Source of the DNA: Granulosicoccaceae bacterium
GTDB lineage: Bacteria; Pseudomonadota; Gammaproteobacteria; Granulosicoccales; Granulosicoccaceae
Assembly (NCBI GenBank): GCA_020629835.1
Contig: JAHDCO010000011.1
Coordinates: 1 to 64,000 of the forward strand
DNA length: 64,000 nt
Direction of reading: 5' to 3'
Shown here: piece by piece, positions 46,165-53,643 of the stretch
How the letters are laid out: the number at the start of each line of letters is the position of its first letter
How positions within the stretch are numbered: the first letter of the stretch is position 1
The notes under the pieces: model-generated
Databases searched by the model: none
What the model was told of the DNA's origin: nothing
The model's input: only the letters and a program-made list of their open reading frames with translations
Program-made: the position numbers and the translations under genes

Positions 46165-46478
46165 AGTGGTTTCGCCAGAGTGAGCCTGCGTACAAGCTAC
46201 CGTAAGAGGTGCCACACAGCAATCTGGTACAGAAAATTCTGATAGGAATCGTGGTCAATCTAAGCCAGATTCTGACCCACTCATGACTGAATCTGAGACT
46301 TTTCTGATTCTGTGAGAAAGGGTTTGTAGTTATCGATCGAAGGCTTGGACAAAAGTCGGAATACCCCATAACTTAGGCATCAGATTTTCAACAACCGGCT
46401 CCGAAAGGTTTTGCAGAACCAAGACGGAATGGAAGCTGAGAGTCCACCAAGGAAGAATCCGCCGCGAAGGAGAGCACA

Positions 46479-48839
46479 ATGGCAACAAGCCGGTTTATTG
46501 GCCTGCCATTGGCGTCTAAAGGACAACGGCGTGTGCTGGCACGGAAAGCCGGCACCGCGTTGTTTCTTTCGGTCTTAGTAAATTGCCTTCTGTGTTATGG
46601 CAGCGCCAACGCTGGCACTCAGTGCGGGCCCGAGCCGGGTGCCGCCAACTGCGGAGATACCCCTGTTGACTTGGGTTCAGCTCCCACACCAGCAGGAAGT
46701 AGGCACTACATCGGAAACCCCATCGATGTCATCACCGGTAATAAGTATCAACCCGGGTATGACTTCGCAGCCTTTGCTTCACCGCTAGTCAGAACTCGCC
46801 ACTACAACACCGCGTTAGCACATCAGAACATTGGTTATGGTGCTGGTTGGCGTGATACCTATAGCTTGCGCTTGTATAAGACCAGTCATGGTTATCAGCT
46901 GATTCAGAGTGATGGCCGAGCCATTACATTTGAGCGCTCTGATGAAAAGCCAACACAGTACGCAACTCAGTATGCAACCGATGGCATCTTGAGCACTCAA
47001 GGTTCAATAACGTGGCAACTTCCCGATGGCCGAACCTGGACGTTTGTGGGTAGCTATCCAACCCAGTTAGCGCTTTCGGATGGAACCTGGCTAAAGCTGA
47101 CTTACAAAGACAAGCGCTTACATACCGTTACTGACGACTTGGGGGATTCTTTGCAGTATTTCTATTCAGCAGGTCCCGTGGGATTAAAGCGGTATTCAAA
47201 CGAAGCCAACGGTACGCAACCTGGGCATTTACGTTGTGTGCAATTGCCTGACGGTAGCGGGGTTCATTATGGCTACGATGCGAAATCTAACTTGGTTAGT
47301 GTGCAGCACAGGGATGGTTACAACTGGGAGTATGGGTATGAGGATGAGAGGTTTGAGGGGTTTTTGACTAGTGCCCGAGCATTAGAAGTGGTAGCCATTA
47401 AAAACAGTAAAGATTGGCTGGGCTGTTTCTCACCGGTCTCATCGAGTGCCGGGATAAAATCTGAGCCGTATATCTTTAATAACAATCAATCTGTATTTTC
47501 AAAATGGGGTTACGATCAGCAAGGACGCGCAGTTTCTATGTCTGTACCTTACGACAAATTTGATCTAGAACTAAATTATGGTGTGGGATATACAGACATC
47601 AGAAAAACTGACAGAGGCACAGACTCATCTGAGGTACCTTTAAAGTCCGATCGGTCTGTTTATTACAGATTTCATTGGAAAATAGCGGAATTCGGAGCTA
47701 GCAATATACAGCTGAAAACCTGCCGGACCTGTAGTTTTCAAAATCTAATCCCTGTTCTAAAACGGAGCTGGCATGGACATACAGGGGTAGTCCGAAACTA
47801 CGGAGAAGCTAATGGTTTTCCAAAATCTCGAGTCGAAAACACAAAATCAGCCTTCAAAGGACTTGCAAACGGAAAGTTTCAGCCGAGAACTGGTGGTACT
47901 CCATCCGGAAATACGCGTTTGTACTCGAATACTGATTTATACGGTTTGCACGATCTAGCATGCAATAACAAGAAATTATCATCTCAAGAAATCGAAAGTG
48001 AAAAAGAGTTAGCTTGTTCATTTGCAAAGCATCGGGTCGTAGCACTTGAACTTCAGCCACAAAGGCAGCGTCCATATAAAACGCGCTATGGTAGCAGTAG
48101 ATTTATTCCAGTACATCTATTCAAACCTAAACACTGCCCTCTACCCGAAGGTATGACGTGTGCCGATATTGACGAAGCTATATTATTCGCGTCACTCGCC
48201 GCTTGCGCGTACGACCCTGCTGATTGCCGAACTGACTGGATCCAAGTCGACGGTAAAACGTTATCTATTCCGGGCCACCTATTTGAGTTGGGCGCCTACA
48301 GAGCCGTGTTGCTTTTTAATGAAGCGAGAAATGAATATGTGATTGCTTTTAAAGGTACGTCTCTTCTAAGCTTAAAAGACTGGAAGACAAACGTCAGTAA
48401 TCATCTAGGTTTGGGAGATCCGATCCATTACGAATTGGCGGTCGAATTAGCCCGCCGGTTAGTACGATCACTAGAGGAATCGAACAGCACTGCTACTTTA
48501 GTATTCACCGGGCACTCGCTAGGTGGTGGGTTAGCGTCCATCGCTGCTTTAGCTACTGGAGATAAAGCCACTGTGTTCAATACAGCTGCTGTTAGCCAAA
48601 ATACACTGTATGAAAATTTGATCGATTTGCAGGCTGATAGCTCTCATATTGAAGTTATCAACACAACTGGTGATGTAGTCTCTGATTTCCAAAATCTAAC
48701 GGGATCAGTTGCTCCTGGGCAACATACCTATATCGGCAACCCGAGCGCGTTAACCTCAGTTAATGCACACTTTCTGTCTTCCGCACAGAAGGAGCTTAAC
48801 AAGCTAAATGCTACCTACTGCAATGGAGCCTCCAAATGA
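46479..48839 (+). CDS. Exported RHS/DUF6531-type protein with C-terminal class-3 lipase (Mbeg1-like) domain; candidate phospholipase toxin
   Basis: Sec-like signal; AGSRHYIGNPIDVITGNKYQ, GYGAGWRDTYSLRLY, GWGYDQQGRA-type RHS segments; YVIAFKGTS..DWKTNVSNHLG and GHSLGGGLASIAAL lipase motifs. Confidence 0.82.
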   Translation: MATSRFIGLPLASKGQRRVLARKAGTALFLSVLVNCLLCYGSANAGTQCGPEPGAANCGDTPVDLGSAPTPAGSRHYIGNPIDVITGNKYQPGYDFAAFASPLVRTRHYNTALAHQNIGYGAGWRDTYSLRLYKTSHGYQLIQSDGRAITFERSDEKPTQYATQYATDGILSTQGSITWQLPDGRTWTFVGSYPTQLALSDGTWLKLTYKDKRLHTVTDDLGDSLQYFYSAGPVGLKRYSNEANGTQPGHLRCVQLPDGSGVHYGYDAKSNLVSVQHRDGYNWEYGYEDERFEGFLTSARALEVVAIKNSKDWLGCFSPVSSSAGIKSEPYIFNNNQSVFSKWGYDQQGRAVSMSVPYDKFDLELNYGVGYTDIRKTDRGTDSSEVPLKSDRSVYYRFHWKIAEFGASNIQLKTCRTCSFQNLIPVLKRSWHGHTGVVRNYGEANGFPKSRVENTKSAFKGLANGKFQPRTGGTPSGNTRLYSNTDLYGLHDLACNNKKLSSQEIESEKELACSFAKHRVVALELQPQRQRPYKTRYGSSRFIPVHLFKPKHCPLPEGMTCADIDEAILFASLAACAYDPADCRTDWIQVDGKTLSIPGHLFELGAYRAVLLFNEARNEYVIAFKGTSLLSLKDWKTNVSNHLGLGDPIHYELAVELARRLVRSLEESNSTATLVFTGHSLGGGLASIAALATGDKATVFNTAAVSQNTLYENLIDLQADSSHIEVINTTGDVVSDFQNLTGSVAPGQHTYIGNPSALTSVNAHFLSSAQKELNKLNATYCNGASK

Positions 48840-49468
48840 AAATTGCGCAATTACTTTTACTAGTATCTCTTTTTAGTGTTCATTCATTGACTATCGTTCG
48901 TTCGGACAACAGTGACGACAAGTTGCTTGAAGCGATGCAATCCTCAGATGTAGCATTATTTAGAGAGTTACTCGCAATTGGCGAAGATCCGAACACTTCA
49001 GCATCCAATGAATGGTTTCGATTTACGAGTTCTTGCGAATCGACTAAAAAAGGAAATAATGAATTTTTTGAAGCGATCGTTGAGTCGGGCGCTCCCTTGG
49101 ACTTAGTATCACCACTCGGTGGATTCACAGGGAGCATGATCGCATGTGCGATCTTCTATAACAATTTTGAGACCTATCAGCGTTTGCTAGACTTGGATGT
49201 CGACATTAATACAGTACAGAATCCTGCGGCGCATGATTCACGCCTCTTTATGACACCGATTGATATAGCTGTCATGGCCAATCGATTCAGAATTACGATG
49301 GACATACTAGAGAGGATTGAGCCTACAGAATCGCAGATAAGAACCTTAGTAAGAACCGTAAACCAAACGCCTGGTATCAAGGGTCACCCTGAGCAACCTT
49401 ACAGGGATCAGCTTGCGGATTGGCTGAAGTCCAAAGGTTACAACAATCGAGGCATACAAGCTAAATAA
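48836..49468 (+). CDS. Secreted ankyrin-repeat protein, candidate immunity protein
   Basis: Signal peptide MKIAQLLLLVSLFSVHS; ankyrin-like helices (LLEAMQSSDVALFRELLAIGEDPN, YQRLLDLDVDINT); ATGA overlap with upstream lipase gene. Confidence 0.72.
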   Translation: MKIAQLLLLVSLFSVHSLTIVRSDNSDDKLLEAMQSSDVALFRELLAIGEDPNTSASNEWFRFTSSCESTKKGNNEFFEAIVESGAPLDLVSPLGGFTGSMIACAIFYNNFETYQRLLDLDVDINTVQNPAAHDSRLFMTPIDIAVMANRFRITMDILERIEPTESQIRTLVRTVNQTPGIKGHPEQPYRDQLADWLKSKGYNNRGIQAK

Positions 49469-50440: not shown

Positions 50441-53400
50441 CTACGGCGTGGGATCGCAGGCGTCTCCAATTCCATCGCTATCCCCGTCTAACTGCATTGG
50501 ATTTGCAATAGCGGGGCAGTTGTCGGTGTCATCAAACACACCGTCACTGTCGCCGTCGTCACATACATCCCCAACGCCATCACTGTCTTGGTCGTCTTGT
50601 GTGGTGTTGGGGGTTGCAGGACAGTTGTCTACGTCATCAAAGATGGTGTCACTGTCGCTGTCATCACATACATCCCCAACGCCATCGCTATCTTGATCGT
50701 CTTGTGTGGTGTTAGGAGTTGCAGGACAGTTGTCTACGTCATCAAGGATGGTGTCGTTGTCGCTGTCATCACATGCGTCACCCGTACCGTCACTGTCCTG
50801 ATCCGCTTGTGTTGAGTTTGCAACCGCTGGGCAGTTGTCTGCACTGTCGGATATGCCGTCACTATCCGAGTCTGTACACGCATCACCCACACCATCGGAA
50901 TCGCTATCGGTTTGTGCAGGGTTAGCTACCGCTGGACAATTGTCGACGTCATCAAGGATAGTGTCGTTGTCGCTGTCATCACATGCGTCACCCGTACCGT
51001 CACTGTCCTGATCCGCTTGTGTTGGGTTGGCAACCGCTGGGCAGTTGTCGGCACTGTCGGATATGCCGTCACTATCTGAGTCAGTACACGCATCACCGAC
51101 ACCATCTGAATCGCTGTCGGTTTGCGCAGGGTTAGCTACCGCCGGGCAGTTATCGACATCATCGAGGATGGTGTCGTTGTCACTGTCATCACACGCATCT
51201 CCAGTGCCATCCGAATCTTGATCGGCTTGGGTAGGATTGGCAACCGCTGGGCAGTTGTCGGCTCCGTCAGATATACCGTCGCTGTCTGAATCGGTGCATG
51301 CGTCACCCACACCATCGGAATCGCTGTCAGTTTGCGCTGGATTAGCAACGGCGGGGCAATTATCTACGTTGTCGAACACCCCGTCGCTGTCACTATCATC
51401 GCAAGCATCACCGGTGCCGTCGCTGTCCTGGTCTGCCTGAGTTGGGTTAGCCGTAGCAGGGCAGTTGTCGGTATCGTCAGACACGCCATCAGAATCAGTA
51501 TCCGCTTCGCAAGCGTTACCAATGCCATCGCTGTCACTGTCTACTTGCGTGGCGTTCGCCACCGCTGGGCAGTTATCAACATCATCGTTAACGCCATCGT
51601 TGTCGCTGTCATCACAGGCGTCGCCTAAGCCATCGCTGTCCTGGTCGGCTTGGCCCGGGTTACCAACCGTTGGGCAGTTGTCCGTGTTGTCCGCAACGCC
51701 ATCACTGTCGCTGTCGTTTACCAAGTCACAGGCATCGCCGAGACCATCTGAATCGGTATCGGTTTGAGTAGGGTTAGCATCGGCAGGGCAGTTATCCACG
51801 CTATCACCAACGCCATCGCCATCAGAATCAATCAACGAATCGCAGGCATCACCAATCTGATCGTTGTCCACATCGGTTTGGTTGGGGTTGGATACGGTCG
51901 GACAGTTATCTTGATTGTCGGGTATTCCGTCACCATCCCCGTCCAAAGTCGATTGGCAGGCGGTGTTGTTGGTCGCGGGAACACAGGCGTTGGAATTCGC
52001 CGCATCGTCCTCGTCAGACACGCCGTCACCGTCAGCGTCGTTCAGACTCGATTCCTGATAGTCAGGTATGCCATCACCGTCAGAGTCTGCGGTTAGTGTT
52101 TCAACAATATCTAAGTCACCATCACCATCGGTATCGCGTGTTTGATCAGCACAGGCGTTGTTGTTGGTAGACGGTACGCAAGCGTCACTGTCGTCTGAAT
52201 CAAACTCGTCAAAGGTTCCGTCGGAATCGGCATCCAATATGGACGACTCAAGATAATCCAACTTGCCGTCTTGATCGGTGTCGGCCGTTAGCGTTTCGCT
52301 TTGGTCTGTTTCACCGTCATTGTCGCTGTCTCGGATTTGATCGGCGCAAGCAGTGTTGTTTTGCGATGGTATGCACGGATCAGTGTCATCTCGGTCGTTC
52401 TCTTCCGACAACGAATCGGCATCGGCATCGATTAAGCTGCTTTCCAGGTAATCGGGCCTGCCATCGTCATCTGCATCGGCACTTCCACCTTCGACACTAT
52501 CGGGTTCACCATCATCGTCGCTATCAATTTCGCAGCCTGTGTTGAACTGCGATAACTCGCAAGGATCGCGCGGCGGACTATCCGGGTCGAGCGGGTCATT
52601 ACCGTCGTTAAATTCCTGGATGTTGTTAAAGCCATCGTTATCGTCGTCAAGCTCTACGGTGTAATCGGTATTAACCACTTCAATCGTGGTTCCGTTGCCA
52701 ACATTCTCACTGCGTTGCACCACCGCTAAGCTGACGCTGGGCTGAGAATCACCGGTAAATCGAACCGTTAAAAAGGCATCGCTATTTTGTACGGCCGTAC
52801 CGATGCCCACCCACGCCTGGCCGTCGAATGACAACGCGACGGGCTCATCGTTGAGTTCTGCAAATGGTGTGCTGGTGGGAGAGGCAGGATCATTTAGGGG
52901 GTTGCTTAACTCAGTCGGGTTTTGCACGCGCAACCCGACGTTCACTCGCACGACCGGGTCACCCGGGTCGGCAGCGTTTAGTGGGTCGGTGTTTGAGTTG
53001 CGTTCAGCCAGGTTCGAGATACCGTCACGGTCATCATCGAAAGTGCTGTTGTAGATGTTTGATGGAAACGAAATTTCCAGTTCAGAAATATTGAACGGCA
53101 CGGGTACCACGCGGGTAGCCTGCGCAAGGGGTAGTACGCGGCTTTCAAAGTTTTCTGCCCAGGCAACATTGACCGATATGGTGGTACCGGTTGGGATCAA
53201 CGCGGTGCCGGTCCAACGCCCGGTCACCGGGTCCCGCTGGGCGTCCAATGTCTGGCTTTCGCCTGCTTCGTCGGTGAGTGTGATGGTCAGTGCCAGCGCA
53301 TCAGGCGGTATGGCCCGTGGCGTCACGAGCTGCACAGGTGGGGTGAGCCCGAGCGATGCGTTGTTTTCGCCCGCTTCCACTTGATCCATGCCTTGGATTT

Positions 53401-53485
53401 GCGACGCCTCGTCCTCAATGGTGCAGGACACGAGCGCGAAGGCGGCCAGAATCAAGGCTAATATTGAACGCTGCAAACCGATCAT
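50441..53485 (-). CDS. Thrombospondin type-3 repeat lipoprotein (Ca2+-binding repeats)
   Basis: Lipobox FALVSC; many DSDGDGVxDxxDNCPxxxNPxQxDxDxDGxGDACD repeats. Confidence 0.88.
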   Translation of the reverse strand: MIGLQRSILALILAAFALVSCTIEDEASQIQGMDQVEAGENNASLGLTPPVQLVTPRAIPPDALALTITLTDEAGESQTLDAQRDPVTGRWTGTALIPTGTTISVNVAWAENFESRVLPLAQATRVVPVPFNISELEISFPSNIYNSTFDDDRDGISNLAERNSNTDPLNAADPGDPVVRVNVGLRVQNPTELSNPLNDPASPTSTPFAELNDEPVALSFDGQAWVGIGTAVQNSDAFLTVRFTGDSQPSVSLAVVQRSENVGNGTTIEVVNTDYTVELDDDNDGFNNIQEFNDGNDPLDPDSPPRDPCELSQFNTGCEIDSDDDGEPDSVEGGSADADDDGRPDYLESSLIDADADSLSEENDRDDTDPCIPSQNNTACADQIRDSDNDGETDQSETLTADTDQDGKLDYLESSILDADSDGTFDEFDSDDSDACVPSTNNNACADQTRDTDGDGDLDIVETLTADSDGDGIPDYQESSLNDADGDGVSDEDDAANSNACVPATNNTACQSTLDGDGDGIPDNQDNCPTVSNPNQTDVDNDQIGDACDSLIDSDGDGVGDSVDNCPADANPTQTDTDSDGLGDACDLVNDSDSDGVADNTDNCPTVGNPGQADQDSDGLGDACDDSDNDGVNDDVDNCPAVANATQVDSDSDGIGNACEADTDSDGVSDDTDNCPATANPTQADQDSDGTGDACDDSDSDGVFDNVDNCPAVANPAQTDSDSDGVGDACTDSDSDGISDGADNCPAVANPTQADQDSDGTGDACDDSDNDTILDDVDNCPAVANPAQTDSDSDGVGDACTDSDSDGISDSADNCPAVANPTQADQDSDGTGDACDDSDNDTILDDVDNCPAVANPAQTDSDSDGVGDACTDSDSDGISDSADNCPAVANSTQADQDSDGTGDACDDSDNDTILDDVDNCPATPNTTQDDQDSDGVGDVCDDSDSDTIFDDVDNCPATPNTTQDDQDSDGVGDVCDDGDSDGVFDDTDNCPAIANPMQLDGDSDGIGDACDPTP
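50750..51440. repeat. Tandem repeat of about 210 bp (70 codons) within the TSP3 gene
   Basis: Anchor cagttgtc(t/g)gcactgtcggatatgccgtcac near 50831 and 51041 with a diverged copy near 51251, spacing 210 bp. Confidence 0.8.
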
Positions 53486-53643
53486 TGCGATTTTCACAGC
53501 TCGCCAGCGGCACCTCTGGGCGAAGCCCGTTGCCACGACGCACTGCGTGTAGTGAATAAGGCGTCCAGTTTACTCGGCTTGGGGGTATGAAAACCAGTAA
53601 TATGCCCTTGCCGTCAATATGTTAACGCTTGTTAAGTAAACGG

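What the first reader, a model, noticed from the sequence alone, without database searches (positions are those of the whole stretch)
46479..49468. Candidate exported RHS-lipase toxin with overlapping secreted ankyrin immunity gene
Seen in sequence: an exported protein with DUF6531/RHS-like N-terminal segments ends in a class-3 lipase domain (GHSLGGG nucleophile elbow at about 48504-48530, plausible Asp in NTTGDVVSDF and His in GQHTY or VNAHF). The next gene starts inside its stop codon (ATGA, 48836-48839) and encodes a signal-peptide ankyrin-repeat protein. Established knowledge: RHS N-termini deliver variable C-terminal toxins, and phospholipase effectors acting in the periplasm usually pair with exported immunity proteins. 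Inference: this is a toxin/immunity pair. It is unusual in carrying its own Sec-type signal and only a short RHS part with no obvious DPxGxxxG autoproteolysis motif or linked T6SS genes, so the delivery route is unclear.
Basis: partly seen in the sequence, partly recalled or inferred. Interest (0 to 1): 0.82.

Follow-up and report, generated by a model that had tools for sequence, protein, structure and literature searches.

The report
Secreted RHS lipase with ankyrin partner
A marine Granulosicoccus bacterium carries a two-gene unit, conserved across its family, that most likely makes an exported membrane-cutting enzyme and the ankyrin protein that restrains it; it looks like a known type VI secretion toxin/antidote pair re-mounted on a short RHS carrier and sent out by the ordinary export pathway.

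Summary
A 786-aa gene (46479-48839) and a 210-aa gene (48836-49468) overlap by ATGA. The first has a signal-peptide-like N-terminus, DUF6531/RHS, a disordered linker and a class-3 lipase domain; the second is an exported ankyrin protein. This is a family-wide system in Granulosicoccaceae: 20 aligned homologues keep Ser680, Asp/Glu732, His764 and an extra set of cysteines, and an ankyrin gene follows in 18 of 22 loci with assembled downstream sequence. The four exceptions are one clade at one site. The lipase domain's best solved match is the E. cloacae T6SS phospholipase Tle ('Tle6', 7UBZ/9CYS), whose immunity protein is an ankyrin repeat protein. Distant lipases are also flanked by ankyrin genes (43 of 134 neighbours against 5 of 473 other genes). 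The pair evolves much faster than syntenic neighbours. The genome lacks the T6SS sheath gene TssC but has T2SS GspD. Best reading: a Sec-exported toxin/immunity pair of Tle6/Tli6 type on a truncated RHS carrier, secreted by T2SS or held at the surface. Toxicity, binding and route are untested; the ankyrin-less clade is the main evidence against an obligatory antidote.

The parts
46467..46472 (+). AAGGAG ribosome-binding site of the RHS-lipase gene
   Evidence: sequence
46479..48839 (+). RHS-lipase gene, 786 aa
   Evidence: ORF and translation; Pfam; homologues across the family
46479..46613 (+). Sec-type signal peptide: basic N-region, hydrophobic core, ANA|G cleavage site (residues 1-45, inferred)
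   Evidence: sequence; hydrophobic N-terminal segment in all 20 aligned homologues; AF2 helix 14-39. No dedicated signal-peptide predictor was available
46713..46931 (+). DUF6531 domain
   Evidence: PF20148 E 2e-14
46716..47723 (+). Short RHS beta-sheet part (residues 80-415), about a third of a full RHS shell, no autoproteolysis motif
   Evidence: AF2 pLDDT mostly about 90 up to residue 300, lower after; Foldseek to T6SS Rhs shells 7pq5, 7q97
47733..48137 (+). Low-confidence, fast-evolving linker (residues 419-553)
   Evidence: pLDDT below 50; mean identity 19% for residues 300-545 against 39% (N part) and 36% (lipase)
48144..48827 (+). Class-3 lipase domain, Tle6-like (residues 556-783)
   Evidence: Lipase_3; 7ubz_B E 9e-27 by profile, 2e-8 single sequence; 9cys_A by fold, E 1e-9
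48516..48518 (+). Catalytic Ser680 in GHSLGGG
   Evidence: invariant
48672..48674 (+). Catalytic acid Asp732, aligned with the Glu of the GELLTKIQ motif of the E. cloacae Tle chain
   Evidence: D or E in 20 of 20; alignment; triad in PMC11470151
48768..48770 (+). Catalytic His764
   Evidence: invariant
48825..48828 (+). GGAG ribosome-binding site of the ankyrin gene, inside the lipase gene
   Evidence: sequence
48836..49468 (+). Exported ankyrin-repeat protein, 210 aa, candidate immunity/chaperone partner
   Evidence: ORF; Ank_4; AF2 mean pLDDT 83.6; Foldseek to ankyrins/DARPins; family profile A2 in 16 genomes of the order below E 1e-10

Best explanation
The two genes encode an exported antibacterial phospholipase-type toxin and its exported ankyrin-repeat immunity protein, a relative of the Tle6-Tli6 pair of T6SS effectors that has been joined to a short, Sec-exported RHS carrier. 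Shown: domain content, gene overlap, family-wide pairing, conserved catalytic triad, closest solved relative, absence of the T6SS sheath gene, presence of a T2SS secretin. Inferred: both proteins cross the inner membrane by Sec and meet in the periplasm; there the ankyrin protein binds the lipase domain, probably at its lid as Tli does, keeping it inactive during transit and protecting against toxin from kin; the lipase then leaves through the type II system or is held at the surface; the RHS beta-sheet presumably serves in folding, surface display or target binding; in a competitor lacking the ankyrin the lipase damages membranes. Conserved cysteines around the lipase domain probably form disulfides that stabilise it outside the cytoplasm.
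For: Lipase domain best matches 7ubz/9cys, a T6SS lipase effector solved with its immunity protein; that immunity protein is an ankyrin repeat protein which both neutralises and activates the lipase, and Tle6 lipases are reported to be invariably encoded with ankyrin immunity genes (PMC11470151; PMC10294624). The ankyrin gene follows the RHS-lipase in 18 of 22 family loci with assembled downstream sequence. Lipase and ankyrin distances correlate (r 0.93, Mantel p 0.0002, n 13). Distant lipases in other taxa: 43 ankyrin genes among 134 adjacent genes against 5 among 473 others, including three large RHS-type proteins with an ankyrin gene overlapping their 3' end (L093, L094, L101). Fast evolution: RHS-lipase 40-46% and ankyrin 31-41% identical between three syntenic species, against 71-90% for most neighbours. 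Signal-like N-termini on both proteins throughout; lipoprotein-type ankyrins in L048, L049, L051. No TssC in the genome; GspD present in all 48 genomes of the order.
Against: Four species (L045, L050, L052, L054), one clade, keep an intact lipase with no family ankyrin anywhere, so the ankyrin is not indispensable there. The loci are syntenic and vertically inherited, with no exchange of C-terminal domains within the family, unlike typical polymorphic toxins. Only one possible immunity duplicate was seen (L053). No toxicity, binding, activity or secretion data exist. The ankyrin proteins are too divergent for homology with Tli to be told apart from general ankyrin similarity.
Confidence: 0.68

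Rival explanations
1. An ordinary secreted lipase used for nutrition on algal surfaces, with the ankyrin protein as a dedicated periplasmic folding helper (steric chaperone) rather than an immunity protein.
For: Vertical, syntenic inheritance; no C-terminal swapping within the family; T2SS in all genomes; an ankyrin-less clade whose downstream neighbour is an apparently secreted galactose-oxidase/PA14 protein; Tli itself has a chaperone-like activating role.
Against: RHS carrier and Tle6-like lipase are both toxin-associated; the fast divergence of both genes is more typical of conflict genes than of nutrition enzymes; a required chaperone should not be dispensable in the ankyrin-less clade either.
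Confidence: 0.2
2. T6SS effector-immunity pair of Tle6 type that merely has an RHS N-terminus, delivered by a T6SS.
For: Lipase and ankyrin are closest to a T6SS pair; some pair-bearing genomes have TssC (G029, G043, G045).
Against: No TssC in the window's genome or in most pair-bearing genomes; signal-peptide-like N-terminus on the lipase in all homologues; no PAAR domain found by Pfam; short RHS part without the closed cage or autoproteolysis motif.
Confidence: 0.05
3. Toxin aimed at eukaryotes (algal host or grazers), with the ankyrin protecting the producer's own membranes.
For: By my own knowledge Granulosicoccus is often found with seaweeds; lipases of this fold also act on eukaryotic lipids.
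Against: No eukaryote-specific domain was found; the nearest studied relative is antibacterial; an antidote is most useful against kin attack.
Confidence: 0.05
4. Decayed remnant: a truncated former RHS toxin whose parts persist without function.
For: RHS part is about a third of full length; one relative (L051) is split in two frames.
Against: Catalytic residues, cysteines and length are conserved in 20 aligned full-length homologues from two genera.
Confidence: 0.02

Closest known systems
Tle-Tli (Tle6-Tli6) of Enterobacter cloacae, PDB 7UBZ/9CYS, PMC11470151
   Same: Class-3 lipase fold, GHSLGGGLA elbow, catalytic acid six residues before a conserved Gln, catalytic His; adjacent exported ankyrin-repeat protein; expected periplasmic site of inhibition
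   Different: Here the lipase is fused to a signal peptide plus DUF6531/RHS part and a long linker; five conserved cysteines around the lipase domain; the genome has no TssC; Tle needs cytoplasmic Tli and a methylglyoxal crosslink, which a Sec-exported enzyme could hardly use in the same way
T6SS Rhs effectors (RhsP 8h8a, RhsA 7q97, Tre23 7pq5)
   Same: DUF6531 and RHS/YD beta-sheet at the N-terminus, toxin domain at the C-terminus, immunity gene downstream
   Different: No PAAR found, only about 330 RHS residues, no DPxGxxxG, lipase on a disordered linker instead of inside a closed cage, signal peptide
Sec/T2SS-dependent polymorphic toxins with RHS repeats (class in Zhang et al. 2012, PMC3482391)
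   Same: Signal peptide, RHS repeats, C-terminal enzymatic domain, downstream partner gene; ankyrin immunity (Imm-ank) is listed there
   Different: In that table Imm-ank is linked with Tox-AHH nucleases, not lipases; no swapping of C-termini seen in this family
Long RHS proteins (1500-1800 aa) of the same Granulosicoccaceae
   Same: Same signal peptide-DUF6531-RHS start (32-38% identical to the window's)
   Different: Full RHS length, RHS core domain (PF03527), mostly DPxGxxxG, diverse C-termini, no lipase; separate clade in the N-domain tree

Membership tests
Tle6-Tli6 T6SS lipase effectors | Class-3 lipase domain closest to E. cloacae Tle with Ser-acid-His triad | tested here: met
   triad of Tle from PMC11470151
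Tle6-Tli6 T6SS lipase effectors | Adjacent exported ankyrin-repeat immunity gene | tested here: met
   18 of 22 family loci; absent in one clade of 4
Tle6-Tli6 T6SS lipase effectors | Delivered by a T6SS encoded in the genome | tested here: not met
   no TssC/VipB in the 97%-complete genome; signal-peptide-like N-terminus
Tle6-Tli6 T6SS lipase effectors | Ankyrin protein inhibits (and activates) the lipase | not testable with these tools
RHS polymorphic toxin (cage type) | DUF6531/RHS N-terminus | tested here: met
RHS polymorphic toxin (cage type) | Complete RHS shell with DPxGxxxG core boundary | tested here: not met
RHS polymorphic toxin (cage type) | Variable C-terminal toxin on conserved N-terminus | tested here: not met
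   short proteins all carry the same lipase; long ones with other C-termini form their own clade
Sec/T2SS-dependent toxin-immunity system | Signal peptide on toxin and T2SS in genome | tested here: met
   actual secretion not tested
Sec/T2SS-dependent toxin-immunity system | Toxicity relieved by the partner | not testable with these tools
   experiment proposed

The most novel reading that the evidence does not exclude
A T6SS-type phospholipase/antidote module has been rebuilt for general (Sec/type II) export in Granulosicoccaceae: a short RHS sheet replaces the delivery machine, conserved disulfides replace the methylglyoxal crosslink that Tle6 needs for activity, and the ankyrin protein acts as a purely periplasmic chaperone-inhibitor; one lineage has since freed itself of the antidote.
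Probability: 0.2. Interest if true: 0.75.

Novelty: new variant of a known kind. Interest (0 to 1): 0.55.

Why it matters
It shows a well-studied contact-injected toxin type in genomes without the T6SS sheath gene, carried by the ordinary export route on a truncated RHS scaffold, in marine bacteria. It gives a direct way to ask how Tle6-type lipases become active without cytoplasmic Tli and methylglyoxal crosslinking, what a partial RHS shell is for, and, through the ankyrin-less clade, whether an ankyrin partner is an antidote, a chaperone or both.

Tried and rejected
A single-protein scan of genome contigs with the window protein found nothing; the profile scan worked. NCBIfam (SA1320 family, far below cut-off) and PADLOC (weak PDC-M72A hit over the ankyrin repeats, E 2e-4) gave no useful assignment. 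Delivery by T6SS was rejected for lack of TssC. Delivery by a phage-tail-like device was considered because four paralogues lie a few kb from a sheath-like gene, but no such gene is in the window's neighbourhood and the protein has a signal peptide. The lipase-domain tree with distant relatives was too poorly resolved to prove one origin of the fusion. Promoter and terminator scans gave no more than shuffled sequence. In one search the printed DP positions for the window protein refer to a gapped copy and are disregarded; the other results of that call are not affected.

Full report
Observation. The window encodes a 786-aa protein at 46479-48839 and a 210-aa protein at 48836-49468 on the same strand, overlapping by ATGA, each with a GGAG-type ribosome-binding site. 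Pfam finds DUF6531 and Lipase_3 in the first and ankyrin repeats in the second, each over the curated cut-off. The AlphaFold model of the first protein, built on 20 homologues, shows an N-terminal hydrophobic helix (14-39), an RHS beta-sheet (about 80-415), a low-confidence linker (419-553) and a well-modelled lipase domain (about 556-783). The second is a well-modelled ankyrin solenoid behind a hydrophobic N-terminus.

Where it comes from. Named contigs whose lengths equal those of the relatives' contigs (for instance 3284 and 864863 bases) are Granulosicoccus. In 48 genomes of the order, 28 have a match to the protein, and RHS-lipase genes of about 800 aa were read at some 20 loci besides the window's. 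In a sample of 369 genomes of the class, no genome outside the order showed both halves in one short gene, although that search scored only the two best candidates per genome.

Conservation. Over 20 aligned full-length homologues the following do not vary: Ser680 in GHSLGGG, His764, Gln738, and cysteines 49, 58, 553, 561, 576 and 781; Cys583 is in 19; position 732 is Asp in 15 and Glu in 5. In 75 distant lipases the Ser is invariant and the acid is D or E in 73, while none of those with an aligned residue has Cys at 576 or 583. The extra cysteines are therefore a feature of the RHS-fused, exported form.

Closest solved relative. A profile of the family finds 7ubz/9cys, the E. cloacae T6SS lipase effector solved with its immunity protein, as the best hit of all (E 9e-27), and the window's lipase domain alone finds only that entry (E 2e-8). 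Foldseek gives the same entry as the best lipase match and T6SS Rhs shells for the N-terminal part. In E. cloacae, Tli is an ankyrin repeat protein; [quoted passage not shown] PMC10294624). The alignment puts window Asp732 opposite the Glu of GELLTKIQ.

Pairing. Counting loci with sequence beyond the stop codon, 18 of 22 have the ankyrin gene directly downstream, overlapping or within about 35 bases. The four without it (L045, L050, L052, L054) form one clade (100/99) and share one genomic site, where a convergent galactose-oxidase/PA14 gene ends right behind the lipase gene; L047 sits next to some of the same neighbour genes with its ankyrin. No family ankyrin lies elsewhere in those four genomes; the weak hits there are in 617-639-aa proteins. 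Ankyrins of this family below E 1e-10 occur only in genomes that also have the RHS-lipase gene or a fragment of it. In distant taxa the same lipase domain, mostly as stand-alone proteins, is flanked by ankyrin genes (43 of 134 adjacent genes against 5 of 473 other genes in the same loci), and in three cases ends a large SpvB/FG-GAP/RHS, TcdB-like/RHS or DUF6443/RHS protein followed at once by an ankyrin gene. The distant set was chosen by similarity to the query, not by neighbours, so this is not circular; its members are not fully independent of each other.

Evolution. In syntenic loci the RHS-lipase (40-46%) and ankyrin (31-41%) diverge far more than neighbours such as RsgA, isocitrate dehydrogenase and oligoribonuclease (75-90%). 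Lipase and ankyrin distances correlate strongly, as expected of partners inherited together. N- and C-halves co-diverge (r 0.74), and the long RHS proteins of the family, with other C-termini, form a separate clade. So the short RHS-lipase is an old, stable architecture, not a recent swap.

Delivery. TssC is absent from the window's genome and from most pair-bearing genomes, while matches to the type II secretin GspD are in all 48 genomes. Hydrophobic signal-like segments occur in the 20 lipase and 14 ankyrin sequences of the family, whereas only 8 of 75 distant lipases pass a hydropathy threshold of 2.2 (a simple measure, not a trained predictor, and some family members fall under that threshold too). 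Sec export of both is therefore likely; passage over the outer membrane by type II secretion, or surface display, is inference.

Interpretation. The most likely function is a secreted or surface-held phospholipase toxin with an exported ankyrin immunity protein that may also help it fold. The toxin step, the inhibition step and the route have not been shown. The main competing view is a secreted enzyme with a dedicated periplasmic chaperone. The ankyrin-less clade weighs against a strict antidote role and offers a natural test.

Membership. It works like Tle6-Tli6 and its lipase domain belongs with that group, but it is not filed as a T6SS effector because the delivery feature was tested and not met. 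It is not a standard RHS cage toxin because the full shell and the autoproteolysis motif are missing. It fits the broad class of Sec/T2SS-dependent toxin systems with RHS repeats described in PMC3482391. None of the titles and abstracts returned by six searches of the open library describes an RHS-fused, signal-peptide-bearing lipase with an ankyrin partner; subscription papers are mostly outside that library.

Noticed in passing
L051:5999-8560 (G045): A relative's RHS-lipase is split into two reading frames while its ankyrin gene stays open; could be a broken toxin with retained immunity or an assembly error.
   Followed up: no
L053:9322-10769: Two ankyrin genes in a row behind one RHS-lipase; the second is shorter (166 aa).
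   Followed up: partly
L039, L040, L041, L043: Another paralogue group lies a few kb from a phage-tail-sheath-like gene, and in L039 from a caspase-domain gene.
   Followed up: partly
L045:8842-13047 and matching genes in L050, L052, L054: A convergent galactose-oxidase/Kelch plus PA14 lipoprotein-like gene occupies the place of the ankyrin gene in the ankyrin-less clade.
   Followed up: partly
L089, L112, L116, L118, L120, L144 (Luteimonas/Lysobacter): Repeated lipase-ankyrin-lipase-ankyrin arrays of stand-alone relatives.
   Followed up: no
window 50441-53536 (-): 1031-aa lipoprotein-like protein made of many thrombospondin type 3 repeats (15 stretches).
   Followed up: no
L146:5623-6774 / L166:4193-5344: A secreted-looking 383-aa lipase of the same kind without RHS part and without a detected adjacent ankyrin gene, among the nearest non-Granulosicoccus rows to the window's lipase in a weak tree.
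   Followed up: no
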